From Chiridota heheva (lineage: Eukaryota > Echinodermata > Holothuroidea > Apodida > Chiridotidae): a DNA stretch of 64,000 nucleotides. Numbering within the stretch: the stretch's first letter is position 1; every line of letters begins with the position of its first letter. The stretch is taken from contig JAIGNY010003250.1 in NCBI GenBank assembly GCA_020152595.1, forward strand, positions 409,501-473,500. Reading direction: 5' to 3'. Under the pieces are notes generated by a model. That model saw nothing but the letters and a program-made list of their open reading frames with translations. It ran no database searches and was not told the DNA's origin. Shown here one piece after another: positions 4,507 through 30,100 of the stretch. A program made the translations under genes and the position numbers.

Positions 4507-4612
4507 ATAAGTTGAAGTCACATCGCAATTTCCTTGTGACCAGATTCCCTCTTGAAGTAAATTCTATTTAGTAAGTGCCCACCTAGAAATAAGGTTAATG
4601 TCTGATACTCAC

Positions 4613-4743
4613 GCCAATCTGAGAACGATGCCATCAAACGTATCTGGGACAATTGCACCGGCTTCAGCAAGGGCCTGATTCTTAGCCAATGAAGATTCCT
4701 TCAGAACATCTATGCCGCCCCCAGTATGACCAAAGTATGCAGG
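4613..4743 (-). CDS. ACLY-like: ACLY-like exon 19 (phospho-His)
   Basis: Codons 737-779 plus two bases of 780. [20 protein letters not shown] aligns with [20 protein letters not shown]; His742 corresponds to the phosphorylated His760. [16 protein letters not shown] matches NQALKEAGVFVPRSFD. Acceptor ATTCCAG, donor GGC|GTGAGT, phase 2. No later exon was found down to position 1. Confidence 0.95.
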
Positions 4744-7700
4744 CTGGAATAAAAACAGATGATATATGAACGAACTAGATGAGCAACAATAACATATTGA
4801 AAATGATCAGTTATATTACTAGCGATGCTAAAGTTTTATGCAAATAGATCACAGTCATATCACTAGCGATGCTAAAGTTTTATGCAAAAAGATTAGTCAT
4901 ATCACTAGCAATGTTAAAGTTTTATGCAAAAATATCAGTTATATCACTAGCAATGCTAAAGTTTTATGCAAATAGATAAGTCATATCACTAGCAATGCTA
5001 AAGTTTTATGCAAATAGATCAGTCATATCACTAGCGATGCTAAAGTTTTATGCAAAAATATCAGTCATATAACTAGAGATGCTAAAGTTTAATGCAAAAA
5101 GTCACTAGCGATGCTAAAGTTTTATGCAAATTTCAGAAATTTTAACACCCAACACTTTAAAGCTCTCTATCACTTTTAATTTTTGCTGACAATGCCACAT
5201 TTATAATTTGCACAGCTATCACATGAAAGATTTGCGCCCTTACAACAGCGATGTTCAGTTTTTCCACATGTTAGAAAATCGAACATCTCAAGGCCACCGA
5301 AAATTTATGCATCACTGCCCTCACACTTCCATACATACAGTGTACGATTATACATACACTGTACGTATGGAGTTTGTTTCGGGAATGGTTTAAACGGACA
5401 CAGCGTGTACATTATTTAAGAAATATTTAATGAGGGCGCTGCAAGTAGCAATGTCGTAGATGTCAAGGCACAATATTGGCATGATAAATCCATACAGGTC
5501 TATGGACAGATGCAACAAATGCCTGTTCAACCCCACACCAAAAAGAGCATTAATAGTCATTGAATCTTGAAAATAGCATGTGCAGTTTTAAAGTTATCGA
5601 AGTTTGAACATTTTTTTTTAAACTAAACAAAATGTGATGTATGAACAAAAAAACACCTCCAATTTTTTTTTATATGTTTCTTCCCTTCATTTCTGACCTT
5701 TAAAATGTTCAAAATTTGCCTTTTACTTCTTGAAGTTGGTTGGGATTAGTGTAAAGATCTTTATTAAAATCAACCTCCTCTTTCAAGGAGAAATGGCAGA
5801 TGGTTAAAAAACAATGGATTTACATAATAAAATAGAGACTATGTCCCTTTCATACATCACAAGAGTAACACAAAAATTTCTTAATGCCCATATGTGCACA
5901 AAACTCTTCAAAAAGCTGTAAAATGACCACTTTGATTTTGATAAAATTCGTTTTAGTGGATTGTAAATCAACTCCCCCCTCCCCCTCCTAACTTCTTTCT
6001 CTCCCATCCTGCCCATAAACCTTTAAGATTCAAAATGTCTCCTGTTTTATGAAAACATAGAAAGTCTCACAAAATGTTCAGGTATCTGAAGACCGTGACA
6101 TGCTCAATTATGAGAGATTTCCCTACAAAAGACTTACTCTTCCGTCATAAGTGAATAAACAACAAAATTGAATAAAACAAAGGAAAGAAACATTTTGACT
6201 TCTTGTTTTCATAGACTGATAGATGATACGTTTGGTTTGATAATGTTTAACAACACTGCAGCAGTCAGAGTCAAATGTACCAAGATATTGAAAATTGATT
6301 AAAGGGGCATTTCTACACCCATTAAAGCAAAGTACTCACCAAGACAGAAAATTGTGCCTCACTACATCAAATTTCTATACAGTTTGAACAAAATAACATT
6401 TCTAGCAAATTTTACAGTGTCGCCAGAAAATCTCAATTGTAGATTTAATCATGTGTGAGCAAGTCAGAACATTTTCTAATATTTTTTTCCTGTTGGATTT
6501 TCTAAAAAATCGCTCGCCACCACATTAGGTGTGCAACAGTCTTAAGAAAACTCTGGAAAATCTTGAAATAAATCTTTAAGTAGGAGAAGCTAAACTATGT
6601 AATGTTGAGTTTAGAGATTATCATCCCAGCTATGTGCTAAGTTTTAAGTGTATCCACAGTGCTCTGACGAATAAAAATTTCTTTTCAGCACGTACGTGAA
6701 GTTTCCTTTAAATTTCTGGGCGAAAAAGGAAATAAATGCTACGAACAAGTAATATCCAACCTTTGATGAAAATTATTTAAAAACTCATCTTAGTTGTTCA
6801 CAATTAGGTAAGTTAAGGTATTTTACATCCCTGCTAAACAGCTGAGGTTGTATAGAGATGTTCATGGCTGTTTGATAAACCAGTTGTGAAGCAGTGAATG
6901 AAGACCCACCAGGGATTGAACCAAGGACCTCGAGCATCCCAAGCTGATGCTATAACAGCTAGACCACGGAGGTCTTCGGCTATGACTGTTAGACCACGAG
7001 GTCTTCGGCTAAAACTGTTGAACCACGGAGGTCTTCGGCTATGACTGTTAGACCATGGAGGTCTTCTACAGCCGGCAAAGCACTTACTTCTTGCTGGAAT
7101 TCTGTCACACACGTCCCAATGCAGAAGGCAATGACTGGCTTGGTGATTTTACCGTTCTTCAGAGCCTCGCATACATCATACTCCTCTACACCGCCCATCT
7201 GCAAACATAAAACAATAAAACTGTATAAAATATTCATGCATAGCAGCTTGAACAGTAGCTGCCTGCTCACAACAAACATAGGAAGCCTATTTTGCCAGTT
7301 CATATTTAAAGGAGACATAAAGTCTGACTTTTACCTCCTTCGTCATGATAGAATCAATAATAATAAGTCATTTGCCCATAAATCACATCCTCCAAAACAA
7401 TCTAACATATATTTTCCAATTTACAACAATAATTCTGTCAAAAAATAATTTACATGGGAGCAGCCATTTTGTTCATACTGCCCTCTAAAGATGACATCCT
7501 CCTCAACACAGTTCTTGATAACAATAGAATGTATTTCTATTTCAAATTTTCTAGCTCATAAGAAATTAATTTTTTTTGCATGGATCTATGAAATGTTATT
7601 TGTGCATGATATTTTGTCTATAAAACTTCATGTCAAAGTACACTGACAAAAAATATCAAGAAAAATATGAATAAATACATTATTGCATCTCAACACATAA

Positions 7701-10700
7701 TGCCAGCTTTCACTTACAACTGACTTTGTCTCCTTTAAAGCATGTACATATGAACAACATATTTTTGTATTGCTTTAAATGAGAGCAATTAACAGATTAA
7801 AAAAAACATTTCAAGCATTATCAAATATGAACTCTTTCCTAAATTTCTTAAATTCAACACCATAGCAATAGACATAACCCAAATCCACACACTAAAGACT
7901 TTTTACTAAATATTAAGTTTTTCGTTTGCTTGTGTTTAATGGTACAACAGCTAAAGTCATTTGTGCCAAAAGCTTGTACTGAGTGCAAAGAGATGTGCTA
8001 GTCTTATGGCAGTGCTAGAGATGTGTTAGTCTTATGGCAGTGCTAGAGATGTGTTAGTCTTATGGCATTGCTAGAGATGTGCTGGTCTTATGGCAGTGCT
8101 AGAGATGTGTTAGTCTTATGGCAGTGCTAGAGATGTGTTAGTCTTATGGCAGTGCTAGAGATGTGCTAGTCTTATGGCAGTGCTAGAGATGTGTTAGTCT
8201 TATGGCAGTGCTAGAGATGTGCTAGTCTTATGCTAGATCTTAGTCTTGTAATGGCAGTGCTAGAGATGTGCTAGTCTTATGGCAGTGCTAGAGATAGAGA
8301 TGTTAGTCTTATGGCGGTGGCAGTGCTAGAGATGTGTTAGTCTTATGGCAGTGCTAGAGATGTGCTAGTCTTATGTGCTAGCATGTGCAGTGCTAGTCTT
8401 AGATGTAGAGATGCTAGTCTTATGGCAGTGCTAGAGATGTGCTAGTCTTATGGCGGTGCTAGAGATGTGCTAGTCTTATGGCAGTGCTAGAGATGTGCTA
8501 GTCTTATGGCAGTGCTAGAGATGTGCTAGTCTTATGGCAGTGCTAGAGATGTGCTAGTCTTATGGCAGTGTGCTAGTGCTGGCAGTGCTAGAGATGTGTT
8601 AGTCTTATGGCAGTACTAGAGATGTGTTAGTCTTATAGCAGTGCTAGATATGTGTTAGTCTTATGACAGTGCTAGAGATGTGTTGGTCTTATGGCAGTGT
8701 TAGAGATGTGTTAGTCTAATGGCAGTGCTAGAGATGTGTTATTTGACACAATTAAAGCGTGTCATTTTCCAAGGGCTCGACATCGAGGGCCGTGGTGGAA
8801 GGGGGACATGGTTTACAATAATTTTAAGCAGTACCAGTGCCTTTTCGCTATTCGCCCGATGAGCAATTGCCAACGTTGGTCCTGGTTCCCGAATCTCAAA
8901 CCCATAAACGGGATTTGCCTACCGAAAGTTGGGAGAATCAGTCAAAAGTGGGAGGGGGCGGTGAGAGAAAATCACAAAGTCACGCTATGATACTAAAAAA
9001 TCACCAAACAAAGTACACATTTGGAAAAAAAGTGGGGTGGGCCAAGTGCCCTCTTGCTCCCCCCAAATCCCGACAGAAGTACCACTTTTGAAAATAAAAA
9101 GTGCCACTCAATTACTGTCAAAAAGTGCCTTAACTTGATTTGTTAATGTATTTTTAGTGAAGAAAAAAACAGAACCAAAAGGTTTTGTGGTTCTTATGCT
9201 TTTTTCCATGCTGATTGATTTTGTATTAACTGTTATGTCATTGCATATCATGAAATATTTGACATGACATGAATCATTCTTGACATATCATGTATACAAA
9301 CCCATTTCAGCAAAATCATATTAATCCTTGCCCACTAAGGATATTAATGCAATTCAATGTTTTTATAAAATGAACACATACAAATTTACTAGCTAACATC
9401 ATAATTCTACAAAATATGAAACAAAACAGACATGTGATCGTTAAAATATGATAATTTCAAGACTTTAACAGTAAGCCCTGCTTACTCATTAATATGCATG
9501 ACATCACCACCAAAATCAATAGGGCACCCCTCGCCCTGAATTGTATCCACCACCCGTGATTCCTTGTTTTTTGCCCCCTCACCCTGAATTCCCTCCACCC
9601 TCCGTGATTCCCTGTTATTTCCCCCCTTGCCCTAAATTCCATCCACCACCTGTGATTCCTTGTTTTTTGCCCTAACCCTGAATTCCCTACACCCTCCGTG
9701 ATTCCCTGTTATTTTCCCCTTGTCCTGAATTCCCTCCACATCCATGATTCCTTGTTTGTTGCCCTCTTCACCCCGAATTCTCTCCACCACCCGTGATTCC
9801 TTGTTTTTTTCTCCTGACACTGAATTCCCTCCACCACCCGTAATTCCTTGTTTTTTGCCCCTTGCCCTGAATTCCCCCACCACCTGTGATTTCTTGTTTT
9901 TTTTCCCCTCACCCTAAACTCCCTCCACCATCCGTGACATCCGTGATTCCTTATTTTTTCCCCTCGCCCTGAATTCCCACCACCATCCGTGACATCCGTG
10001 ACTCCTTATTTTTTTCCCCTTGCCCTGAATTCCCTCCACCACCCATGACTTCTTGTATTTCCCCCTCACCCTGAATTCCCTCCACCATCCGTGATTCCTT
10101 GTTTCCCCCACCCCCTCACCCTGAATATCCTCCACCATCCGTGATTCCTTGTTGTTTTTTCCCTCACCCTGAATTCCATCCACCACCCGTGATTCCTTGT
10201 TTTTTGCCTCACCCTGAATTCCCTCCACCACCCGTGATTCCTTGTTTTTTTCCCCTTACCCTGAATTCCCTCCACCATCCGTGATTCCTTGTTTTTGTTT
10301 TCCCCCTCACCCTGAATTCCCTCCACCACCCATGATTCCTTGTTTTTCCCCCTCACCCTAAATTCCCTCCACCATCCGTGGTTCCTTGTTTGTTTCTCTC
10401 TCACCCTGAATTCCCTCCACCATCCGTGATTCCTTGTTTTCCCCCTTCACCCTGCATTCCCTCCACCATCCGTGATTTCTTGCTTTTTTCCCCCTCACCC
10501 TGAATTCCCTTCACCATCCGTGATTCCTTGTTTTTTCCCCCTTGCCCTGAATTTCCTCCACCACATGTGAGTCCTTGTAGTCTTCCAAGTACAGGTGTTT
10601 TTCATGTCCAAAGCCTTTCAATACAATCTTCGGCAAAAAGTATCTACGTGACCAAACCCCGGTCTATCACATCCACAAAACCAAGCAATATATTCAGTTA

Positions 10701-13700
10701 TTTTAAAAGAAAACACACCTCTCCAATGAGAATAAAGGATTTCACTGACGGGTTTTCATGGAGATACTTGATGTGGTCCATAAATCCAGTACCAGTGTAC
10801 CTATATGGAAAAACAAAAAAATCAACATCAATTATTTGAAGTACAGTTTCAATCTTGAATTACTACCATCTAATCAAAGGGCATTTATTGTGTTAATGTG
10901 AACAGAAATATACAATACAGTTGAACACTTCTGATTGGTCTTAAGCTGACATGCAAATGAGTAACTGTTGCAGAAGGGATGTTACTATTATGAATCAGAA
11001 TTACCGGAGGCTTCAAACAGTTTTCTTAGACAAGATTCCCTATTTAAACCACACCTATCCAGCTCCACATAGATACCATGGTTTCACCCGCAAACATACA
11101 TGCATGTAGAAAACTTGACATATCACATACATTTACAAATGAAAAGACTGAATATTCGAAATAGTATTCTAATATTTTATTTAAGTCCCCCAAAGAGGAA
11201 GTATGTTTATACCTGCATATACGAGGTTGTTTAGATGTAAAAACTGAATGCATAATATTAATGAGCAAGTTACCAAAGAGAAAATGCAACACTTTAGTTT
11301 CAACTTCAATGATCGTGTTGTTTAGGCAACATACACTTTCCTATGCAGCCTCTTCAGGCACTTGACAGCTACACTGTACCTAATTATTTGACATTCCAAC
11401 TCCACCTAAAACAACCCGATTTTTGTAGCCTGTGCTATGACATGTTATCAGGGTCTTAGTGAAAGGAGAGCTGGGCAAGCTGTGGATTCCCCTCCCTTAC
11501 ATTTACGTAAGGTCATATTGGTGAAAGCATCGGAAGAAAACATAAAATGGAATAATGTTAACATTTTTTACAAATTTTTGTAAATTGTTGACCAAGCTGC
11601 ACTTTATCAGTTCTTTTATGAGTTTGGCTCCCCCTTTTTAAATTTCTGGCTACGTCTCTGCCTCTTATAGAAAAAAAAATCAAGAATTTATAGGAACAAA
11701 ATTGATCTTACCTTCCACCTCCAAGAGAAATTCCGAGATATAAACCATCAGTATTCCGAGCAATGGACACACACAGCTCTGTTGATAGACCGCCAGATCG
11801 AGATAGCATGACCACTGACCCAGGTCGATGAAGACCAAGAGAGATCACGTCAGGCATCGGACCACCAATGTCACCAAGAATGTTACATCTCAAGGCCCCA
11901 GGCTTAAAGACATTCACTTGCAATGCATGTTTGGGCTAAAAGAGGGGAAAAATAAATTTAATGGATTAGTTCAGGGGTTAAGCAAGTCCATCTAATATGA
12001 AAGAGGACTTCAAAAGAAACAAAATAGTGAAGAAAGCATTCAAAAAATCATATTCCATTAAGCAGATATTTAAGTTTAATGTTTGGTATCATTTGTGTAG
12101 AAATGACTGAAATGAGACTAGTTGTGATGTCACAGCCTCATATTCCTCAATGTCTTTATATATTCTATCATATTTCTTTCTCAGATTTTGTGGCTTAAAA
12201 ACCATTGGATATGTCAGGAAAGTAGTAAAATGGAATCTTGGAAGGGTAATTATAATCTACCACCTGAAGAATGGCATCCCTCCCAATGTCCCACATGGCA
12301 TCCCTCCCAATGTCCCACATGGCATCCCACCATGCCCCACATGGCTTCCCAATTGATGTCCTACATAGCATCCCACCTTATGTTCCACATTGGATCCCAC
12401 CATATGTTCCACATGGTATCCCTCCCCATGTCCCAATGACATCCTAATTTATGTTCACATTCCATGTCCCCATGGCCTCCTACTCTATGTCTACTACATG
12501 GCCTACTACCTTATGTCACACATGGCATCCCACTCTGTCCCACATGTCATCCCGGCTTGTCCCACATGGCATCCCATCTTATGTCCCACATTATATCCAA
12601 CCATATGTCTCACATTGCATCCCACCATATGTCTCACATGGCATCCCATTCTATGTCCCACATTATATCCAATCATATATCACACATGGCATCCCTCCCA
12701 ATGTCCCGAATGGCATCCCACCATGCCCCACATGGCTTCCCACTTGATGTCCTACATAGCATCCCACAATTAAGTACATGTACAATTAAGATCATGTGCA
12801 ATTAAGATCATGTGCAATTAAGATCATGTGCAATTAAGATAATGTACAATTAAGATCATGTGCAATTAAAATCATGTGCAATTTAAATAATGTGCAATTA
12901 AGATGATGCACAATTAAGATCATGTACAATTAAGATCATGTACAATTAAGATCATGTACAATTAAGATAATGTGCAATTAAGATAATGTACAATTAAGAT
13001 CATGTACAATTAAGATCATGTGCAATTAGGATAATGTGCAATTAAGATCATGTACAATTAAGATCATGTACAATTAAGATTATGTGCAATTAAGATAATG
13101 TGCAATTAAGATAATGTACAATTAAGATAATGTACAATTAAGATCATGTACAATTAAGATAATGTACAATTAAGATAATGTACAATTAAGATCATGTACA
13201 ATTAAGATCATGTGCAATTAAGATCATGTGCAATTAAGATAATGTCCAATTAAGATGATGTACAATTAAGATCATGTACAATTAAGATTATGTGCAATTA
13301 AGATAATGTGCAATTAAGATAATGTACAATTAAGATCATGTGCAATTAAGATCATGTACAATTAAGGTCATGTACAATTAAGATCATGTACAATTAAGGT
13401 CATGTACAAAAATCATGTACAATTAAGAAGATAATGTACAATTAAGATAATGTACAATTAGGAAAATGTGCAATCAAGATAATGTGCAATTAAGATAATG
13501 TGCAATTAAAATCATGTACAATTAAGATCATGTGCAATTAAGATAATGTACAATTAAGATAATGTACAATTAAGATCATGTGCAATTAAGATAATGTGCA
13601 ATTAAGATAATGTACAATTAAGATCATGTACAATTAAGATCAAACCAAAGATATATAAAATATAAAGGAAAAGATCTTCATTGGATACTTACAACAGATG

Positions 13701-16700
13701 GACCAATCATCATCACTCCCTTTTGCTTGGCAAGTAGGATCAGCTCCCTCATTTGCATAAGTGGGATGTGGCCAACCATCATGATGATGCAACGAATCTG
13801 ATCAAAAGTAATAGTTTTGATACGAAAACCTTCAGCTTTTACTTCCATTTTAATCTTTCATATACAAGAGTGTCTTTGATTACTCATCATTTCCTAAAAC
13901 CCCCATCAATAAGAACCAAAACTGATGGTTATAGTTAAATCCATACTAATATCATGAAGGCCCATGAAGTGCTTATTCATGGTTTCCTTGGCTTAAGTTG
14001 ACGAGAGCACATGAATCAACCTGGACAGGACACCAGTCCATCACAGGTCAACTCCTCCATCAGTGCTGGTACTCCTTTTACAGCTGAGTGGACTGGAGCA
14101 GGCAGAGTGAAGTGTCTTGCTCAAGGTACACATGCAGGGCTCCCAACAGGAATCGAACTCTGTACTTCAGGTTCCTTAACTGCTGAGCCACTGTAGCACT
14201 GTGCAGTTCTCTTCCCACTCAAATAAGGAATGCCCCTTTAATTTACATTCCTGGTAGTCTTTCAGTGGGATGGCATGTGGGACAGAGGGTGGGATGGCAT
14301 GTGGGACAGAGGGTGGGATGGCATGTGGGACAGAGGGTCGGATGGCGTGTGGGACAGAGGGTAAGATGGCGCGTGGGACAGAGGGTGGGATGGCACATGG
14401 GACAGAGGGTGGGATGACACGTGGGACAGAGGGTGGGATGGCACGTGGGACAGAGGGCGGGATGGCACGTGGGACAAAGGGCGGGATGGCACGTGGGACA
14501 GAGGGCGGGATAGCACGTGGGACAGAGGGTGAAAAGTGTGTTATTAGCGGCGAGAGGATTTGCATTGTTTGCGATGTCTGGTTAGAAGAAGGTTACCCCA
14601 AGATCGAAACTGTACTTTAAATATATCTTTGATGATAATTTTTCTAATGTTGATTTTGATCCATTTGGGTACACTGGTTTAAAAAGTTCTGAAAACTCAT
14701 CTTTTCTCCTGTTATACAGATTGGATTTTGTAATTTAAGACATTATTATGTATTTTTAAGACTGCATAATTGTGTTGTATTTTTGTACTTAATCTTGCTT
14801 TATACTTTTGGGAATTTGTATTACTTTGTTGTATTTTTGTATTATAATTTGTTTATCTTTGTACAGTGCATTGAGACTGTCAGTATAATGCACTATATAA
14901 AGTTGCATACATAAATATACATAATTATTATTATTATTTATTTGTATTATCATTATTATTATTATTTATTATTATTATCATCATCATCATCATATTTTGG
15001 AGACACCGACTATTCGAGATCTTTGGCCAATTTGATTTCTACATCCCCACCTGCATCTGCCCTTTCCCCCTCCCATCGGAAATTTGAAAGAAATATGGCT
15101 TTTTGGCACCAGAAAACAGTTATTTATAGACAGAAGAGATCAATAACAAATACCATCAGTCCTAGGAAGTTGCAGCATTGCACATTCTGCTTTATTATTT
15201 TCTTCCATCTAAAAGATCACAACCTATGGCCAACTTGGACACATGGCTACCATCTTATCATTTCTAAATTTAAAAAAGTTTGATTATTTTTCATTTTGAA
15301 GGTAATCTGGCACCCACCTGTTTTGTTGCATCATTTGAATTGATTGATCAAATTTACATGAATTTAATCCAATACAAACCTGTGGAATCTGGATTGCTGT
15401 CCAGGCAACTTTGTATGCATAAGGTCCAAAGGCAACATTTCCGATGACCGAAATCTGGGGATGTTCAGCCAGGGCTGTATCAATTGTGCTGTAAACTGCA
15501 AACGCATAAAAGATCCATTTATTAAAAACAGAACTCACATAACAAATGAGATGAACTTGGAAACATTCAACAAAGACAGATTAGTTAAAGGAGTACATAC
15601 AACTATAAAATACACTATTTCTGCTAATAGACAAGTCCTTTAAATTTTGAATATAGCACAGTTATGGCTGATCAACCTTTGAAGATTTGTTGACATATGC
15701 AAAATGTGTGAACAGGAGCTATTTTGATAATTTTGAGAAACATTCAGAGATTCAGAAATTTGTTTTTGATAAGAATAGATGATTGCCACTCATATATCAA
15801 GATGCAATTGAAAGTGCTCTTTAAATCTTTGTTTTAATGGTTATATCCCCAAAAAGGGATAGACAGCCTTCAAACTACTCCAGTCCCAACAACTGCCTCA
15901 CAACAACCACAACTGCCTTAAAGCCTATATAACTGCAAAAGCCCCTACAACTGCTCCAAAGCCCCTACAACTGTCCAAAAGCCCCCACAACTGACCAAAG
16001 CCCCCACAACTGCCCCAAAGTCCTCACAACTGCTCCAAAGCCCCTACAACTGCTCCAAAGCCCCTACAACTGTCCAAAAGCCCCCACAACTGCCCCAAGT
16101 CCCCACAACTGCTCCAAAGCCCCTACAACTGCTCCAAAGCCCCTACAACTGCTCCAAAGCCCCTACAATTGTCCAAAAGCCCCCACAACTGACCAAAGCC
16201 CCCACAACTGCCCCAAAGTCCTCACAACTGCTCCAAAGCCCCTACAACTGCTCCAAAGCCCCTACAACTGTCCAAAAGCCCCCACCACTGACCAAAAGCC
16301 CCCACAACTGCCCATGCACAGTCCTCACAACTGCTCCAAAGCCCCTACAACTGCTCCAAAGCCCCTACAACTGTCCAAAAGCCCCCACAACTGACCAAAG
16401 TTCCCACAACTGCACCAAAGTCCTCACAACTGCTCCAAAGCCCCTACAACTGCTCCAAAGCCTCCCACAACTTCCCAATTTCCACACAACTGACCAAAGC
16501 CACACAACTGCCCCAAAGTCTCTACAACTGAGCCCTTACAACTGCTCCAAAAACCCATACAACTGCCCTAAATGCCACAACTGACCAAAGCCCCACAACT
16601 GCCCAAAGTGCACACAACTGCCCGAAGCCTCTACTACTGCCCCTCGACTACCCCAAAAACTCCCACAATTGCCCCAAAGCCCCACGACTGCCCCACAGCC

Positions 16701-18145
16701 TCTAACTGCCCCAAAGCCTTCAAATTGCCGCAAAGCCCCTACAACTGCTCCAAAGTCCCACAAAAGCCCCCAATTGCCCTAAGCCCCCACAACTGACCAA
16801 AGCCCCCACAGTTGCCCCAAAGTCCCCACAACTGCCCCAAAGCCCCATAACTGCCCAAAGCCTCCATTACTGCCCCCACAACTGCCCCAAAACCCCACAA
16901 CTGCACCCAAAATTCCCACAACTGCCCCCAAAGCCCCCACAACTGTCCTAAAGTCCCCGTAACTGCCCAAAGCTCCACAACTTCCAATACAACCTGCTGC
17001 TACATGACTCAACAAGATCACCTTTGATAGACACTTTTCCTTCACCCCAAAGCCCTCAAAACTGCCCAAAGCCTTCACAAATACCTCAAAGCCCTTACAA
17101 CTTCTTAAAGCCCCTCACAACTGCCAATACAACCTTGCTAGTGACTCATTGAGATCTCCACTCACCTGGGATGATCACTCACCTAGGATGGTCACTCACC
17201 TGGAATGGTCACTCACCTGGGATGGTCACTTACCTGGGATTGTCACTCATCTGGGATGGCAACTCACCTGGGATGGCCGCTCACCTGGGATGGCCGCTCA
17301 CCTGGAATGGTCGCTCACCTAAGATGGCCACTCACCTGAGATGGCCGCTCACCTGGGATAGCCGCTCACCTGGGATGGCCACTCACCTGGGATGGCCACT
17401 CACCTGGGATGGCCACTCACCTGGGATGGCCACTCACCTGGGATGGCCACTCACCTGGGATGGCCACTCACCTGGGATGACCACTCACCTGGGATGGCCA
17501 CTCACCTGGGATGGCCACTCACTGAGGACGGCCACTCACCTGTGATGGCCACTCACATGGGATGGTCACTCACCTGGGATCGTCACTTTTCCTTCGCCCC
17601 AAAGATACTCTTCTTCTTTCTTCTTACTAAAAAAGGAAATTTTGAAAGGAATGAAAGTCAAAAATCAAGGATGGCAGCAGGAGGGACCAAAAAAACTAAC
17701 TACCACCCTTTAAATGACCCTTGAAACTTGCATTAGACAGTCAGAGAATAAGGAGAGAAACACTTGAATTAACATATTCTAGAGCTCCATTGAACAGATC
17801 CTGGTACCCAATGCTGCCAGAGATGTCTGAAAACCTTATTTTTCCAGTTTAAATCTGCATTGCCAATTTGTGTCCACTTTCATTGGGGTTTTTTGGGCTC
17901 TTGAACAATGAAAGAACAACGAAAATGGTCAGCAGTATTGAAATAGGCAAAATATTGACTTTCCAAGTTTTCCGCATTCACAGTAAAATGAAAACGCTGA
18001 CAAAGAAAAATCTCATCACTCATCTGATTTTTGATACATAACATAACAACATAACATAACATAACAACATAACATAACAAGATTACGGGCTAAGAAGGTT
18101 GAGTCACCCCATGAAAAGCGCAAACCAACACCACCACCACCACCA

Positions 18146-18182
<37 letters not shown>

Positions 18183-21100
18183 GCCCAGAGTTAGTAAAGA
18201 ACTTATTAATGTTGACTTTGAAATTGTGAACAGAATTGGAGCTAACTACCCACCGAGGCAAACCATTCCACTCATTAACAACTCTTTGCAAAAAGCTAAA
18301 ACACTGAATATCTATCCATGAGAACTCTTTCGTCAACTTCAAACTGTTACCACGTGTCACATGAGGATCAGCTGAAACATGCAAGAAATAACAGGAATCA
18401 AAGCATCACTACCAGATAGGAACTTAAAAACCTGAATCATACTGCCACGTACTCTTCTCAACTCAAACGTGGACAAACCAAGAATTCGCAACCAAGATTC
18501 ATAAAAGAGATTCCTTACTTTGGGGTGGCTCTTCGCTGAACCTGCTCCAAAATAACCTTATCCTTTTCATAAAAGGGACTCCAAGCCTGAATAGTGAGAC
18601 CTGACTAACTGCTTATACAAATTAAGAACAACCTCTCTGCCAAGAAAACAAACATTTCTTCTAATCAAACCAAGCATCCTATTTGCCCTTGCAGCTGCTA
18701 AAGCACACTGTTTAGAAGGTTTCAGATTGCTAGTAATGACAACACCGAGATCCCTTTCTTGATCAACACAACCAAGATTTGAACCATTCAGGCAGTAATC
18801 AAAAGCCAAATTGTTCTGACCAAAATAAATAACTTTGCATTTATCAACATTGAATGTGTATTGTATATACACATTTGTATTGTATATTGTATATTATTGT
18901 ATTTTCCTAGTTATAAATTGTACATAATTTATGCTGAAAATAAATAAAGATTTAAAGATTTAATGACATCTGCCATGTTTGGAACCAAGAAACTAACTTA
19001 TCCAGATCAGTTTGCAAAAGTGAAGAATCCCTAGCATCATCAACAATCCTGTACAGCTTAGTGTCATCAGCAAATTTACAAATCCTGGAGCCAAGGGAAA
19101 CATCAATATCATTAATGAAGATTAAGAAAAGAAGCGGACCTAATACAGAACCCCAAGGAACGCCACTTGTAACCTTCTTTTATGGAGATACTTCACCATT
19201 AACAACAACTCTTTGTGACCTGTCAACTTACCAAGAATATATCCAACTGGCACACTTTTCCTCCACACCAAGTGCTCGTGTTTTCATCATGAGCCTGCCT
19301 AACGGAACCTTATCAAATGCTTTTTGGAAATCTAAATAGATAACATCCACATTATGACCAGAATCAACTTGTTTAGTTAGTAACATTATCAAAAAACTCC
19401 ACTAAATTAGAAACACAAAACCTCTTAGATAAGAACCCATGCTGGGACAAATTCAACAAATCATTGACCAGTTAATGATCTAGTACACCATCCTTAACAA
19501 TGGACTCCATGACCTTGCACACAACACTAGTTAGACTCACTGGCCTATAGTTAGAGGGCAAACTGTGGTCACCCTTATTAAAAATAGGAGTGACATTAGC
19601 AATTCTCCAATCACTAGGAACAACACCAACATCAAAGCACTTTGAAAAGATAATACTCAGGGGAACAGAAAGAACACCAGAACACTCACGTAAGACAGCA
19701 GGGTGTATATCATCTAGACCGGGTGCTTTATTTGAATTCAAATCCTTCAACTTCTTAGACACAACATCAACTGAAAAATCAACATTCTTAATGGATACTG
19801 GAAAGTGCACAAAAAGATAATCCACAACATCATCAGCAGGGGACTCCTTAGTAAAAACAGATACAAAGTAGTCATTGAAAACCTCAGCCGTATCTCTACC
19901 ACCAGACCACTATTGATAGTAACACCATCATTACCCTAAAGGGGACCAACAACCTCCTTGTTTTTTTGCTTTGAGCGAACATACGTATGAAACGACTTAG
20001 GATTAATATTAACCTTAACCTTAACGTTTTTTAAAAAGCACTTTAGTATCTCTTATCAAACCCTTTGTGAACTTTATATGATACTTATACCTAGCAAGCA
20101 CCGCAGAACACCCACTACATTTATAACACCACCACAACTTCTTCTTTTTCCGAACAGCCTGCAAAACCTTCCGAGACATCCACACTGGCCGATTACACCC
20201 ACAGACTTACTTTAATGGGACAAACCTATTTACACCCTCCAAAAGTATAGATCGGAAAACATCCCATAATTTACAATGATCTAATTCATGGAGCAAAGAA
20301 GTCCAATCGAATGTCAAATTATTCTAAAGTGCAGCAAAGTCAGCATTCCTAAAATCTAAAACCAGTTTATTAGCTGAAGAAACCTTTGTGAAACAATACA
20401 GATCAAAACTAATGAAGTCATGATCATTACACTCTACCTTACCACTACTTAGCACATTTCTAACCATACTTTCTTCACTACTGAAAATCAAATCCAGACA
20501 ATTTCTTCCACGCGTGAGAAACAACACATGCTGGGTGAAAAAACAGACAGATACAGCTTCCAGAAAATCTTTACTATGTGGACCACTAGTACAAAGATTC
20601 CAATCAATATCTGGAAAATTAAAGTCCCCAAAAACAATAACCCTCTTAGAAGCAACTAGACACCCAATGTTGTTGAACTTACGTATTCATACAAAATAAT
20701 TATGATGAATTTGAACATTTGTACCAAAGGTGCACGAAAAGTGTGCTCAATTTTTTTGAGACTCAAGAAAACTACGCCCTTACTTGTTGATTGTCAGCTG
20801 CGGTATCATGAGGTGGGATTATTTGAAAAAATACAAAACCACAATTGCATACCAAACAACTATCACATACCTTGTATAATCATAGGAGTGCCGTACAACA
20901 TTTTATATAGGGTCAAGAAGCCTTTCAGAGAAAAAGATTTTGTGCTTGCAAAACTTACTCCTGGATAATTTTAAATGCTAGACTGAATATTAATTGACAT
21001 CCTCTCTACCTTAAAGCATGATGATCAACTTCCATTAAAGGTGTATGGACATGAAAATCAAACAAAAAAATTTATAAAAAAATCTAGTAAAAAAAAATAC

Positions 21101-24100
21101 AACAAAAGAAATCATTCAAATCAGTAAATCACTGACCATTTTACAGCTTGTTTAATTCTTAAGCTAAACTTTGTATATTTTATTCAAATTTTGTGGTGTA
21201 TTACACGGCGACTTTGGTATTTTTGTTTGAAAATCCTCTGTTTTTGAAATGTCTATCATACAGTAATTCTTTAAAGTGGTGCAGCAAATTTTGACCAAAA
21301 TGTTTTGAGTCTTTGCCATGCGTCCAATTAAATTGTAGCAGAAATAGAATTTCCCATCATTTCCAGGGCCTAAGATTTAGGACAAAATTTTCAAGAATAA
21401 CATGAAGATTTTTAGCTGACCGGAAAGTTATACATCACAAATTTATGCACAAATTTAAAAACTGATGAAACTTTGATCACTTATAACTCAAAAAAGTGCA
21501 ATTTCCAAAGTTACAAAACTGATCTACTTAAATTTCAACCAATGTAATAATTGCTATATGTCTCAGCATAGAACAAATCACTGTTACCTTATTCTAAACA
21601 CATCAATCCCAGTTCCTTGCAACCAGGGAGTTGCCATTTAGATGGCAACTCTAATCTGACAATTAGCAAAGAAAGTCCAGCTTACCTGCCAGGTCTGACG
21701 ATTGCAGATATTGATGGCGTACTTCTGGAACAAATGTAGTCATAGTTTAGAATTCCTTGAATCGCAAGAGGCATCATATTGACAACTGCCATCTGTGCGT
21801 ACAACAAAATGATCAATCTCAAGATATCATTTTCTTTGTATATTGTAGGTGGGTACTTTCTTTGCTCAACAGCTAAGGTTATATAGAGATGTTCACAGCC
21901 ATTTGTTGAACCAGTTGAGAAGCACTGATGAATGAAGAACCATCCGGGATTGAATCCAAGACCTTCAGCATGCTAAGCTGATGCTATGACCGCTAGACCA
22001 CAGCATGCTAAGCTGATGCTATGACCGCTAGACCACAGCATGCTAAGCTGATGCTATGACCGCTAGACCACAGCATGCTAAGCTGATGCTATGACCGCTA
22101 GACCACAGCATGCTAAGCTGATGCTATGACCGCTAGACCACAGCATGCTAATCTGATGCTATGACCGCTAGACCACAGCATGCTAAGCTGATGCTATGAC
22201 CACTAGACCACAGCATGCCAAGCTGATGCTATGACCGCTAGACCACAGCATGCTAAGCTGATGCTATGACCGCTAGACCACAGCATGCTAAGCTGATGCT
22301 ATGACCGCTAGACCACAGCATGCCAAGCTGATGCCATGACCGCTAGACCACAGCATGCTAAGCTGATGCTATGACCGCTAGACCACAGCATGCTAAGCTG
22401 ATGCTATGACCGCTAGACCACAGGTCTCCTATGGACAGTCTTATAACAGTATGTAAGCAATAATGGGCAAAATAAAGCAAATAGTTCCAAACTTAAGTCC
22501 CAGTAAATGGCCAAATTGTTGTTGTTAAATGATTTTAATAACTTATTTTGTATTAAAATTGCAGCAACAGACTTCTCTGCTTCATTCATTTGAGGACGAG
22601 CAGATGATTCAGACAGAAGCTTGGTATCTTCACTACTACCCCCAAGTACTAACTCAATGTGAAAGATACTTTCTTGACGTTTAGTATTTGGAAGTTAGGT
22701 TTGATTTTTAAAAGAATTACATAAAGATTTTGAACTGTCACGGTTTTTACCAAATTTCAATATATTGAAAATCCTCAACAAATCATATAAAAACTTTCTT
22801 TTTTTGTTCAGTTCTTTCATGATTTAGGTGGGATCAGAATTCAGTTTGATGGAGAAACTGGCCTAGCCCCTGAAAGATGTGGTTTGAGGGGGAAACAGTC
22901 CTAGCCCCTAAAAGATTTGGTTTGAGGGGAAAACTGGCCTAGCCCCTGAAAGATGTGGTTTGAGGGGGAAAGTGGCCTAGCCCCCAAAAGATGTGATCTG
23001 AGGGGGAAACTGGCCTAGCCCCTGAAAGATGTGGTTTGAGGGGGAAACTGTCCTAGCCCCTAAAATATTTGGTTTGGGGGGGGGGAACTGGCCTAGCCCC
23101 TGAAAGATGTGGTTTGAGGGGAAACTGGCCTAGCCCCTGAAAGATGTGGTTTGAGGGGGAAACTGTCCTAGCCCCTAGAATATTTGGTTTGAGGGGAAAC
23201 TGGCCTAGCCCAAAGATGTGGTTTGAGAGAGAAACTGGCCTAGCCCTAAAAGATGTGGTTTGAGGGAAACTGGCATAGCCCCTGAAAGATGTGGTTTGAG
23301 GGGAAACTGGCCTAGCCCCTAAAAGATGTGGTTTGAGGGGAAACTGGCATAGCCCCTGAAAGATGTGGTTTGAGGGGAAACTGGCCTAGCCCCTAAAAAA
23401 ATGCGATTTGAGGGGGAAACTGGCCTAGCCTCTGAAAGATGTGGTTTGAGGGGAAACTGGCCTAGCCCCTGAAAGATGTGACACTGAATTAACCTGGCCA
23501 TGCCAAGAAGTAGAACACATGCATTTTTTGGATACGCCATTACTTTTGAATAGATGCAACCTAGTCGGTCCTTCCAATCTTCATCAATGAACTAAGTTCA
23601 AGTTCAAATTCAAGTTCACAACATTTAAATGGTGCATTATCTAAAAAAAATTCTTGCAATGTGCATATAACAATACTATGAAAATAATAGTAAATAAGGT
23701 AAGTAAATATAGCAACAAGATAATGCAAGGCAAAAATACAGATTAAATTACAGAATGGAAAGCACAATTAAGAAGATAAGTCCTAAGTAAATGTTGACTG
23801 AAGGGATCTAGCAGATTGGATTGAAAGGACCAGACTATTCCAAAGCTTTGGTCTGTGCACTTTGAAAGCGATGAAGGAAAAGATTAGGAAATCAGCAAGC
23901 AAACACAGACTAAAATATGATTTACATGCATGTCTGAAGTTTGAATATGATTTACATGTATGTCTGAAGTTTAAATATAATTTACATGTATGTCTGACGT
24001 TCAAATATAATTTACATGTATGTCTGAAGTTCAAATATGATTTACATGTATGTCTGAACTTCAAATATGATTTACATGTATGTCTGACGTTCAAATATAA

Positions 24101-27100
24101 TTTACATGTATGTCTGAAGTTCAAATATGATTTACATGTATGTCTGACGTTCAAATATAATTTACATGTGTGTCTAAAGTTCAAATATGATTTACATGCA
24201 TATCTGAACTTCAAATATGATTTACATGTATGTCTGAAGTTCAAATATGATTTACATGTATGTCTAAAGTTCAAATATGATTTACATGTATGTCTGAAGT
24301 TCCAAGGCATTTATACCTTTCTTACCTGGGTATACTTGGTAAATATTTCTTCCTCCTGGGCAGGGGTATACAGTGGACCATTCTTGTGGGTGGTTTTATC
24401 AGCATCTGGTGTTGCAATCTGCTGATTCATATAAGAAAAATGATCTAAAGATTATTATAATTCTTAGCATAGACAGGATTTGAAGGGGCAAGGAGGCACT
24501 TTTCCCCACTTTTTTCTTCTTCTAAATATGTATCTTTTGTATGATTGGTAATTTTCTGCATCTTAGTGTGATTTGTGATTTTTTCCCCCACTTTTGACTT
24601 TGACCCCCACTTTCGGTAGGCAAATCCCAGCCATGGTTCTGACACCCAGAGGATACATCAGCTAAATTATTTAAATATCTTATTGAAATTTTTATTAAAA
24701 TCTCTTCAAAATTGACTATTTTACACTTTACACCGGATTCAACTTCTCGTATCATAAATTGTGCAAGTCCTTGAGATATCACATTTACAATCTTTATTTG
24801 GCAAAACCACTTTAAGCCCTGCCACTGCACATACTGTAATACTGAGATTCAAAGTTTTCATACCATGAGCCTGTAAATACTACCTAACAATATTTGTAAA
24901 CCAACTATGAAACAAAACGGACATACAGTTGTTGAAATATGTACATTTCAAGATTTTTACGTTAAGTCCCGCCCATTCAATAATATGCATGACATCATCA
25001 CCAAAAACAATAGGGCACATCTACGAACCATGGGCTACCTGTGCACCATATATGATATGAATCCACTTTACCATTCTTGAGATATTGTGTTTACAAAATT
25101 GGCATCACACACACATGCACACACACACGCATACACATACGACATCGTGACCGCAATGTTTCCTGATGCTATCGCATTGGAATCAAAAACTCTTTTACAC
25201 ACTATATTGATTATTGAAACAATTTACTACAAATTTACTAAATGTATCACAATTGATACAATATAATGTATACCTCGATTTCAAATAGATACATGTACAG
25301 CATCAAAAACAATTGATGTTTGAATTTACATTACGATATATCCTTGGTCTGTTACATGCGGCGCCCTCTATAGTCTTCTTTCCTAGAGCGTATTCTATGA
25401 TGTCATGGACAGGCACCTCCCCTCCAAAAAGATAAATTGGAATGCCTGCAAATTTAAGAAAAAAATGCACAAAATTTTGATTAAGTCTTCCATTTTAATT
25501 TTCAGACCCGTAAAAGGGTCCAAAGGTAAAAAGAAAAATTATAATTGGCCAACTTATTTAACCAAAGAGATAAAACTGGGATGCCTGAAAAATAGGAAAT
25601 AGAAATTAGTCTTCGATATTCAAATTTCAATGCCTGTAAAAGGATCCAAATGGAGAAAAAGAAAATTGTGATTGGGCAACTTATTGAACAAAACTCATTT
25701 CAAAAGTAGGCAGGAATATCAAGCAACAGATCAAATCACGAAATGTTCTGAAAAAGATGACAAATTTCAGCAAAAAGAATTATATCACTTTGCGCATCTT
25801 TTAACAGTCCATGGCGCCATCATAAATAAAGTACAGTATACAGTATGTAAATGAAAAATAGTTTTGTTTCAAAATACTAACAAAATAATGATTAAATTAT
25901 GGCTGTACAAACAACTCTGCCACACCCCTTATCATGCTTCTGTCCTCCTTATTCCTGTACATTAAACAATAACTTTAAGTTCTACACAATACACTTTTAC
26001 AGATTAATCATTTGAATTTTTTTTTTTCTTTTCTTTATGATGAGACTTTCACAGTAACCTACTGCAGTGGTAGAATTCCCTCGGTGTCTGAAAGTGAATA
26101 ATTCAATTGAAAGATTTAGGCTTGAAATCAAGAAGTTTCCATGTTCAGTTTGCTAATTGCTACTGTTTGAATTTCTGCAATTAAGTAAAACTAATTGAAG
26201 AATGATTAGGTGGGGAGGTAGGCACAGTACATTGGATATCTTACATCCCCTTCTTAACATCTAGGTTATGATATAGCCGTTTGATAAACCAATTGTGAAG
26301 CACAGATCAAGAGAAACCCACCAGAAATCGAACCCAGGGCTCCTAGCTTGCCAAGCTGATGCTATGGAGGTCTTTTGTTTGGGGACACAAATAAACAATT
26401 TGAAAATGACAGCTTTAGACCATGGAGGTCTTCTGTTCAGGTACACAAATAAACAATTTAAAGATGACAGCTAGACCATGGAGGTCTTCTGTTCAGGTAC
26501 ACAAATAAACAATTTAAAGATGACAGCTAGACCATGGAGGTCTTCCGTTCGGGGACACAAATAAACAATTTAAAGATGACAACTAGACCATGGAGGTCTT
26601 CTGTTCAGGTACACAAATAAACAATTTAAAGATGACAGCTAGACCATGGTCTTCTGTTTAGGGACACAAATAAACAATTTAAAGATGACAACTAGACCAT
26701 GGAGGTCTTCTGTTCGGGGACACAAATAAACAATTTAAAGATGACAACTAGACCATGGAGGTCTTCTGTTCAGGTACACAAATAAACAATTTAAAGATGA
26801 CAGCTAGACCATGGAGGTCTTCTGTTCGGGGACACAAATAAACAATTCAAAGATGACAGCTGGACCATGGAGGTCTTCTGTTCGGGGACACAAATAAACA
26901 ATTAAGAGATGACAGCTAGACCATGGAGGTCTTCTGTTCGGGAAACAAATAAACAATTTAAAGATGACAGCTAGACCATGGAGGTCTTTAGTTCAGGGAC
27001 ACAAATAAACAATTTAAAGAAAATAATTTGATTTGAAATTACATTAATTGATCCATGTAAAAAAAAAAGCTATTGTTAAATACTTGGAGATATTGTAATT

Positions 27101-30100
27101 ATGAAAAATATTGAGGCTAATTATTGTACACATCTCTACCAGGGGTGTAGGAATACTTGGAGATATTGTAATTATGAAAAATATTGAAGCTAATTATTGT
27201 ACACATCTCTACCAGGGGTGTAGGAATACTTGGAGATATGTAATTATGAAAAATATTGAAGCTAATTATTGTACACATCTGTACCAGGGGCGTAGGAATA
27301 CTTGGAGATATGTAATTATGAAAAATATTGAAGCTAATTATTGTACACATCTGTACCAGGGGCGTAGGAAGGGTCACCCTTCAGGGGGGCAAAAAGCAAA
27401 ATTATTTCCCGGTGACAAGTGAAAAAATTGCACTGGTAATTTAGGTTTCCATTAAAGTTGCTAATAATCAGGAAATCCCCTTCAATTTCTGGAACATTTC
27501 CTTAACATTTAAATAAAAAATTTCCTTCATTTTCTGGAAATTTTGGCCATTTTTCAGTGATTTTGGGCCAGTTTTCGGGAATTATTGGCCAATTTTCTGG
27601 AAATTCAACCAAAATATCCAAGAATTTAACCACATTTTTAAATTTTATGTTAATAATTTCCTAATTTCACCTCCCAACATGGGCAGAAAACATACAACCG
27701 GGAGGGTGAAATCCGCAGTTTGTCCCCTTGCCACCCCCACCCCCCCCTCCCCCTTCTTCTCCTGCTTCATATGTCAATGATCTCTACTTTCATTCATAGC
27801 CACATTTTCATGTGTAAATATGTTTCAAAAAGTTATTATGTCAGAAGTAAAATGGAGTCATTGTCAAAATGCTGCCAGGAAGTAAATAGGAGGCACAATA
27901 TCAGCTGTATATGCTCTTGTCATGCAACACTGTAACATCACATCTTTAACACTGAAGCATTATGAAAACAGCTTTTTCATAAAAAAAATTGCCCTCAAAA
28001 CTTGTCACCAACAATGCATGGCTTAACAATCAAATACCACCTGATCACACGAAGACAGTTTAACTTCCTTTGTAAACATATGTTGGAAAAGTTGATGGTA
28101 GAGTAACAAGTATTGCAGATCCGTACAACATATTAACCCAAAAGCTATTTCAAGTTGGATAATAAACTTGGCTTAATGATCATGTCATAAACATTGAATT
28201 ACAGACCCTTGAAATGGCTGGTAGGAGGCTTTATTCTATCCTTATAGTAATTACCTAATGCTGTAAGTGGGATATGTCATTTACGTAGTTTCACTTCCTT
28301 TGTAAATATTTATTGAAAAAGTTGATGGTACACCAAGAAGTGTTGCACATCAGTTAATGTTAAATTTAATTCATACTTAGGGTGCTACCTATGACCCATC
28401 CAGCGCTCACCACCAGTTTCCTCCACATAAAAAGATAAAAGTACATGGCTCTCCGAGGATACTGGGATAGGACAACAGTTCATCGCAGGTCACCTTTCCA
28501 TGTTTCATCATTTTACAGCTGAGTAAACTGGATGAAATAGAGTCAAGGGTATTGTTAAAAGACATAACAGGGGTCAAACTTGGTAAGTCGGATACAAGCA
28601 CGACTCCTTATGACCACTGAACGGTACAGCTTGTGACATTAAAATAATCTCTGACTTGAGGACCCTTTCATAGATATTTAGGACCCTTTCATAGACATTT
28701 AGGACCCTTTCATAGACATTTAGGACCCTTTCATAGACATTTAGGACCCTTTCATAGACATTTAGGACCCTTTCATAGACATTTTCGACCCTTTCATAGA
28801 CATTTACGACCCTTTTATAGACATTTAGAACCCTTTCATAGACATTTAGGACCCTTTCATAGACATTTAGGACCCTTTCATAGACATTTAGGACCCTTTC
28901 ATAGACATTTAGGACCCTTTCATAGACATTTAGGACCCTTTCATAGACATTTAGGACCCTTTCATAGACATTTTCGACCCTTTCATAGACATTTAGGACC
29001 CTTTCATAGACATTTAGGACCCTTTCATAGACATTTAGGACCCTTTCATAGACAATTAGGACCCTTTCATAGACATTTACGACCCTTTCATAGACATTTA
29101 CGACCCTTTCATAGACATTTACGACCCTTTCATAGACATTTACGACCCTTTCATAGACATTTACGACCCTTTCATAGACATTTACGACCCTTTCATAGAC
29201 ATTTAAGAAGTAACACTGTCCTGGTACTAGAAGACTAATTTGTAATTACCTAATGCTGTTAGTTCTGGGGGTATAACCTCATTCTTGTAACCAACCACAC
29301 CAACTGTGGAACGGATAATAAGAGTTATCTTGTGGTCTTGCAACCTTTCTTTGAACTCATCCAGAGCCTGAAACATTCCCTGTGGACCAAAAAATATATA
29401 AATGTTTCAGAAAGGGAAATCAAAATCAAAATCATAAACTAGAAATCAAGATCAAATTTGTGATAACAATGTAAATATCCATGAAATTGCATATAATACA
29501 TACAATTATTCTGAAAATAAAAACTGCAAGAAGAGGCATGTACATTTGGCAAATGCTTCCAAATTCTTATATTCTTATCAGCAGGGCCGTTGAGAAAACC
29601 ATAAGCAAACTAATATTTGGGAGCCATCATATCTCGAAAAATGTGGATGACCAAGTAAAGGGTCTGCCGCTATTGTTGTTACCATTCAAGCATGGGTTTT
29701 GGCCAATTGTTGCTCCTGTGGTTATGTTTTCACTGTCATTTTACGTTTTTGGTCCCCTAAATATATACTTCGTCACATTTAGTGACCTCTAAGCACGGGT
29801 CCGGGGCGACTTGACCCCTTCTCAGCCAGCAGTACTTCTTATCATAAAATTCTTCTTGAACCAAGAATACTAAAATCACTATTAAAATCATCTGTAAAGT
29901 TTTTAAACATTTTGATGACTTGGCAGAAAAATTCAAAAGTGTGTGTACATGTAAGAGACGTTCTATCATCACATGATATCATTTACCTGTCCCTGTCTGA
30001 CTTTATTTTTCATGAGTGTAAGTACATCAATCGCCTGACTGCCGGTGATCAATACTTTCCCTTCTGGATGTTTCTCTTCAAGCATAAAGTTCAGAATTGT

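What the first reader, a model, noticed from the sequence alone, without database searches (positions are those of the whole stretch)
17157..17626. A minisatellite built from a 5' splice site: about 25 tandem donors after microexon 13
Seen: the 53-bp exon 13 ends ATCCCAG and is followed by GTGAGT. The next about 420 bp repeat a 17-bp unit containing that same exon end and donor (CCATCCCAG|GTGAGTGG), most copies with a full CAG|GTGAGT. Inference: slippage at the exon-intron border created an array of competing U1 binding sites. As 17 is not a multiple of 3 and the sequence after the real donor reads GGT GAG TGA, any downstream donor adds a stop codon, so use of the array would regulate output by nonsense-mediated decay. 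Alternatively, U1 may be sequestered or the many sites may strengthen definition of a tiny exon. I know of no described case of a donor-site minisatellite of this size.
Basis: partly seen in the sequence, partly recalled or inferred. Interest (0 to 1): 0.9.

Follow-up and report, generated by a model that had tools for sequence, protein, structure and literature searches.

The report
Tandem splice donors in an ACLY-like gene
A 17-base repeat that contains the working splice site at the end of a small exon has multiplied about 25-fold in a gene related to ATP-citrate lyase; similar repeats are known from human ABCA7 and IFI6, so this is a good new animal example and not a new kind of system.

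Summary
On the minus strand a 53-bp exon (17574-17626) of an ATP-citrate-lyase-like gene ends ATCCCAG|GTGAGT, and 25 units of 17 bp (17156-17580), counting the exon's own border, repeat it. 15 of 25 units are exact CAG|GTGAGT; 22 of 25 keep AG|GT[AG]AG. Homology to ACLY and to an inverted paralog (matching exons 81 kb apart) fixes the exon end and phase; every downstream donor would add an in-frame TGA. The paralog's exon has one donor and no array; the genome's canonical ACLY shows no intron here. A relic of exon tail and donor beyond the array has no array either.

The claim that no case is described is wrong. Human ABCA7 has a 25-bp VNTR starting at the exon 18 donor, with PTC transcripts (PMC5954066); IFI6 has a donor minisatellite (title and citing passage). 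In this genome 2 of 19 other assessable donor-core arrays also sit on real exon ends.

Most likely: chance minisatellite birth at a donor, tolerated because the exon-proximal copy works, with minor leaky PTC splicing. A regulatory role is untested.

The parts
17574..17626 (-).
   Evidence: ACLY alignment; paralog exon with same phases; acceptor TTTCCTTTTTTAG|T
17568..17573 (-). productive 5' splice site GTGAGT of the exon (unit 0)
   Evidence: phase joins to next exon as IPV-Y; same donor position in paralog
17156..17580 (-). donor minisatellite, 25 units of 17 bp, consensus ATCCCAG|GTGAGTGGCC; 7 nt of unit 0 are exonic
   Evidence: TRF; unit list and U1 duplex energies
17020..17052 (-). relic duplicate of exon tail and donor (CTTTGGGGTGAAGGAAAAGTGTCTATCAAAG|GTGATC) without array; similar flank runs on to about 16930
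   Evidence: tblastn hit [11 protein letters not shown]; local alignment score 114 against a maximum of 50 in 200 shuffles
15938..17125 (-). separate degenerate minisatellite of about 20 bp (CTTTGGGGCAGTTGTGGGGG-like) in the same intron, interrupted by the relic
   Evidence: TRF rows 15938-16987 and 17046-17125; sequence
15380..15495 (-). next exon ([17 protein letters not shown]...); its first two bases TT complete the codon begun by the last G of the 53-bp exon (V)
4612..59065 (-). ACLY-like gene: 18 exon blocks alignable to the paralog, no stop inside any of these blocks; gene may extend below 4612

Best explanation
A 17-bp tandem duplication arose across the exon/intron border of an ACLY-like gene, probably by slippage or unequal exchange between short direct repeats (ATCCCA in the last unit and ATCTCA just after it lie exactly one unit apart), and expanded to 25 copies, as DNA does throughout this minisatellite-rich window. 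It was tolerated because the copy next to the exon keeps the coding end and the working donor. Inferred for RNA: U1 can pair about equally with most units; the exon-proximal donor gives the only coding mRNA; a minority of transcripts use a downstream donor, read GE* and are degraded by nonsense-mediated decay. The array is thus a by-product with a small splicing cost, not a regulator selected as such. Shown: array, exon end, phase, stop, paralog without the array, relic copy without the array, purifying selection on the two paralogs since their split. Inferred: birth by slippage, leaky use, NMD, near neutrality.
For: Unit register includes the last 7 exon nt. 15 of 25 units, the true donor among them, have a U1 9-mer duplex energy of -11.7 kcal/mol. 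In-frame TGA after the donor. Inverted paralog C3110 about 486-518 kb: same exon, one donor, no 17-bp array, but a different 16-bp array of 112 copies in the same intron. Canonical ACLY on C2342: the matches on either side of this position abut, with no room for an intron. pN/pS 0.29 between the paralogs over 716 codons in 18 blocks, no stops. 27 arrays cover 30% of the window. Two further exon-end donor arrays in this genome, fermitin and cysteine-synthase-like, out of 19 other assessable arrays. Human ABCA7: retention of one VNTR unit gives a PTC, at about 2 +/- 1% as I read the paper's 'respectively'.
Against: No RNA was available. Competing comparable donors are said to favour the intron-proximal site (discussion passages of PMC6002489), which would predict heavy unproductive splicing, not a leak. 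Substitution events avoid GTGAG (2 of 25 events in 5 of 17 columns; fixed-block P 0.010), a possible sign that the donors are kept, although any-block P is 0.13. The paralog selection test averages over a time longer than the array's life. In the canonical ACLY the two abutting matches are offset by one base, so that stretch is itself frame-shifted or misassembled and is a weaker witness.
Confidence: 0.6

Rival explanations
1. Poison-donor regulator: the array is maintained so that a tunable share of transcripts takes a downstream donor, gains the TGA and is lost by NMD, setting output of the gene.
For: Every downstream donor adds GE*; 22 of 25 units keep a good donor core; GTGAG columns carry 2 of 25 events (fixed-block P 0.010); [quoted passage not shown]
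Against: Paralog with the same exon lacks the 17-bp array; any-block P 0.13; in ABCA7 the unit-retention isoform did not change with VNTR length, exon 19 skipping did; homogenised minisatellites keep their consensus without selection.
Confidence: 0.12
2. Multiple U1 sites strengthen definition of a 53-bp exon, or delay/alter splicing of the following exon as in ABCA7 exon skipping.
For: Exon is tiny and U1 sites are strong; in ABCA7, exon 19 skipping rises with VNTR length.
Against: The 56-bp paralog exon has no such array.
Confidence: 0.1
3. Wholly silent: only the first donor is ever used and the array has no measurable RNA effect.
For: Both paralogs are under purifying selection with intact blocks.
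Against: The two known human relatives both show use of at least one downstream unit.
Confidence: 0.2
4. Assembly artefact: copy number or presence of the array is wrong.
For: No reads could be inspected; a one-base frame offset in the canonical ACLY of the same assembly could be an assembly error.
Against: Units differ (33 of 425 sites from consensus), the genome search with this stretch gave one match only (a search that skips very common words), and other arrays of the same style are frequent.
Confidence: 0.03

Closest known systems
Human ABCA7 intron 18 VNTR (De Roeck et al. 2018, PMC5954066)
   Same: Minisatellite starts at the GT of an exon's donor; unit length not a multiple of 3 (25 bp); 23.7 copies in hg19; downstream unit use gives frameshift and PTC, and PTC transcripts rise with cycloheximide (passages; section 21 read).
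   Different: Different gene, unit and species; ABCA7's VNTR begins at GT, while here 7 exonic nt are in the unit; length polymorphism and RNA effects are shown there and unknown here.
Human IFI6 (6-16) splice-donor minisatellite (Turri et al. 1995)
   Same: Minisatellite providing multiple splice donor sites; a citing paper says two downstream repeat units serve as donors, giving three mRNAs.
   Different: From memory: 12-bp unit, in frame, so extra donors add amino acids; here 17 bp and a stop. Original paper not held.
Fermitin-like (L046, C102) and cysteine-synthase-like (L048, C189) arrays in this same genome
   Same: Exon end and donor match the repeat unit; reading past the donor meets an in-frame stop.
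   Different: Units of 32 and 30 bp; in L048 the first two donors are 23 nt apart and TRF starts the array 10 nt after the true donor; in L046 many units have CTGAGT instead of GTGAGT (16 GT[AG]AG cores, the true donor included, in about 30 copies).

Membership tests
Minisatellite overlapping a functional 5' splice site (ABCA7/IFI6 kind) | Tandem repeat with unit of about 10-100 bp | tested here: met
   17 bp x 24.9
Minisatellite overlapping a functional 5' splice site (ABCA7/IFI6 kind) | Array contains the real donor of a coding exon | tested here: met
   ACLY and paralog homology fix the exon end and phase
Minisatellite overlapping a functional 5' splice site (ABCA7/IFI6 kind) | Further units are donor-like | tested here: met
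   22 of 25 units AG|GT[AG]AG[TC], true donor included
Minisatellite overlapping a functional 5' splice site (ABCA7/IFI6 kind) | Downstream units used as donors in RNA | not testable with these tools
   no RNA data
Minisatellite overlapping a functional 5' splice site (ABCA7/IFI6 kind) | Copy number varies between individuals | not testable with these tools
   one assembly only; no relatives held
ATP-citrate lyase (host gene) | Homology along the protein, intact frame | tested here: met
   phmmer E 3e-106 to PDB ATP-citrate synthase 3pff and 3.5e-105 to 6hxh, labelled human ACLY (query a concatenation with one altered and two added residues); 18 blocks without stops; block with FGHTGG at 4612-4758. 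The whole protein was not assembled.

The most novel reading that the evidence does not exclude
In this animal, 5' splice sites are repeatedly turned into donor minisatellites (three genes seen), and in the ACLY-like gene the array acts as a copy-number dial: more units mean more unproductive donor use and less enzyme, giving a fast-mutating rheostat on a duplicated metabolic gene.
Probability: 0.1. Interest if true: 0.65.

Novelty: new member of a known kind. Interest (0 to 1): 0.4.

Why it matters
It extends donor-overlapping minisatellites from two human genes to another, unnamed animal genome, with a built-in control (a nearby paralog with the same exon and no such array) and two more independent cases in the same genome. 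That makes it a natural test of how the spliceosome chooses among two dozen near-identical donors 17 nt apart, closer than the U1 footprint quoted in PMC6002489, and of how often minisatellite birth at a splice site is tolerated.

Tried and rejected
Considered a special enrichment of donor cores in minisatellites. The triple CAGGTGAGT pattern gave 100 matches (25+75), against 385 (326+59) for the same pattern read backwards; the triple CAGGTAAGT pattern gave 40 (4+36) against 251 (110+141). There is no sign of enrichment. Matches cluster in arrays, so these are not independent counts.

Considered that arrays hug donors in this gene. Of 18 exon blocks, 4 have an array within 60 bp on the donor side and 2 on the acceptor side. 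My random-shift control averaged 5.9 on each side but lets exons fall inside arrays, so it is a weak null and no claim is made.

Considered the relic 17020-17052 as an alternative exon. I saw no in-phase acceptor before it, and its donor AAAG|GTGATC is poor. Rejected by inspection, not by a test.

Tested selection on the units. A post-hoc block of 5 columns (GTGAG) is poor in events, P 0.010, but 0.13 when any block may be chosen. The events were merged by hand from the table. Rejected as proof.

Pfam alone did not identify the fermitin or PALP exons (E 0.029 to an unrelated family, and 0.18 to PALP). PDB sequence searches did.

One search listed 6 further CAGGTAAGT arrays (my notebook says 7, which is a miscount); their flanks were not fetched and are not assessed. 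Searches for AAGGTAAGT arrays, AAGGTGAGT arrays and a Pfam family in the genome got no answer. The species was not identified.

Full report
Check. The window is base 409501-473500 of contig C3110 of an unnamed 1.1-Gb genome with 3744 contigs. The gene is on the minus strand. Tandem Repeats Finder gives 17158-17580, period 17, 24.9 copies, 89% matches. Laid out in register with the exon end there are 25 units from 17580 to 17156, the first being the exon's own border. Of the 25, 15 read CAG|GTGAGT exactly, 4 CAG|GTGAGC, 1 CAG|GTAAGT, 2 TAG|GTGAG[TC], and 3 are not good donors (CAT|GTGAGT, TCA|GTGAGT, CAG|ATGAGT). Duplex energies of the 9-mers with the U1 5' end are -11.7 kcal/mol for the true donor and for the 14 other exact units. 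Units 4 and 6-11 equal the consensus and the edges are worn, as usual in minisatellites.

The exon. Concatenated exon peptides of the window match ATP-citrate synthase (ACLY) chains in the PDB sequence set, best E 3e-106 (the query was my concatenation, with one residue typed as in human and two added). In that alignment [18 protein letters not shown] falls on HKQKFYWGHKEILIPV. The next exon starts after TTTGCAG at 15495 with TTTAC, and G|TT gives the V of IPV. So 17574|17573 is the coding donor. Its acceptor is TTTCCTTTTTTAG|T, and the exon is 53 bp.

Stop. Reading on through the true donor gives G-E-stop, the TGA ending 8 nt into the intron. All 24 further units lie beyond it, so each donor there would give a premature stop, with further exons downstream (six blocks below 15500). 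NMD is the expectation from established knowledge; it was not observed.

Paralogs. A second ACLY-like gene lies inverted on the same contig, about 486-518 kb, its matching exon 81 kb from this one. That exon is 56 bp, with the same phases, ATTCCAG|GTGAGAAC, and no 17-bp array; its intron carries a different 16-bp array of 112 copies starting 300 bp on. Across 18 exon blocks and 716 codons neither gene has a stop, pN 0.20, pS 0.68, ratio 0.29; block ends were trimmed by hand. A third gene on C2342 resembles human ACLY more closely (85% in this stretch). There the match to ...FYWGHKEILIPVF ends at the very base where the match to KNMADAM... begins, so no intron fits; but the two readings are offset by one base, a frameshift or an assembly error. 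So the intron is seen in the divergent pair only, and the array in one member of it.

History. Just beyond the array lies a second copy of the exon tail and donor (17052-17020), followed by flank similar to that following the array (local score 114, best of 200 shuffles 50). That copy has no array. Together with the paralog it points to an array-free ancestral state. The end of the array reads ATCCCAGGTGAGTGGAGATCTCA: ATCCCA and ATCTCA are a short direct repeat at exactly the unit length, a plausible seed. That step is inference.

Same thing elsewhere in the genome. Three CAGGTGAGT within gaps of 5-26 occur 100 times (25+75) in 22 distinct arrays, ours included. Two of the 19 start on recognisable coding exon ends. 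L046 is fermitin/kindlin, [23 protein letters not shown]...KYKPKQ|GTGAGT, E 7e-18 to fermitin 3, with a 32-bp unit, 30 copies. L048 is cysteine-synthase-like, GKVDAVTFGTGTGGTLAG joined to VGIYLKEKNPNIQVVLADP, E 3e-21, with a 30-bp unit, 20.8 copies; TRF starts that array 10 nt after the true donor, but exon end and donor match the unit. L050 lies antisense to an EGF exon. For the other 16 I saw no convincing exon by eye in the peptides; weakly conserved exons could be missed. Reading past the donor meets a stop ending after 20 nt (L048) and 36 nt (L046). Reversed-pattern controls were more frequent than the donor pattern (385 against 100; 251 against 40), so donor cores are not favoured as seeds.

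Function. No RNA exists here, so any mechanism is inference. I commit to: array as tolerated by-product, exon-proximal donor productive, downstream donors a minor PTC-bearing leak. The closest tested case, ABCA7, reports two frameshift isoforms at '14 +/- 6 and 2 +/- 1%, respectively', which I read as 2% for retention of one 25-bp VNTR unit (section 21 read); that isoform did not change with VNTR length, whereas skipping of the next exon did. A caution: comparable competing donors are said to favour the intron-proximal one (discussion passages of PMC6002489), which would make the array harmful. Against this stand the intact gene blocks and the spacing of 17 nt, shorter than the 23+12 nt U1 footprint quoted in the same passage, so neighbouring units could not all be bound at once.

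Selection on the array. 25 substitution events, merged by hand, fall 2 in the five GTGAG columns; P 0.010 for that block taken as fixed, 0.13 for any block. This is a hint, no more.

Novelty. [quoted passage not shown] Turri et al. [quoted passage not shown] paper not held). Searches for precedents were made, of which I saw listings and opened passages of six papers (PMC4526556, PMC3618361, PMC2572611, PMC12783039, PMC2915984, PMC5954066). In these I saw no such case outside human genes; the library holds open-licence papers only. The find is therefore a new member of a known kind, made more useful by the paralog without the array and the two sister cases.

Noticed in passing
window 1-64000: 27 merged minisatellite arrays (period at least 10, at least 4 copies) cover 30% of the window, the largest a 26-bp array of about 209 copies (42664-48099).
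   Followed up: partly
L046 3225-4184 (C102) and L048 3672-4284 (C189): Two more minisatellites built on real exon-donor borders, in a fermitin/kindlin gene and a cysteine-synthase-like gene.
   Followed up: partly
L046 3225-4184: In the fermitin array many units carry CTGAGT in place of GTGAGT, including the first three units after the exon, as if donors had been lost next to the true one.
   Followed up: no
C3110 about 486-518 kb (L008-L011) and window 4.6-59 kb: Inverted pair of divergent ACLY-like genes beside a canonical ACLY on C2342; the pair is 74% identical in one conserved exon.
   Followed up: partly
L013 1455-1630 (C2342): The canonical ACLY has a one-base frame offset between two abutting conserved stretches, a real frameshift or an assembly error.
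   Followed up: partly
window 18360-20686 minus, 52469-52855 minus: Remnants that look like non-LTR retrotransposon reverse transcriptases, the first inside the intron before the 53-bp exon (named from memory).
   Followed up: no
L010 4979-6762: The paralog's corresponding intron holds its own unrelated 16-bp minisatellite of 112 copies.
   Followed up: no
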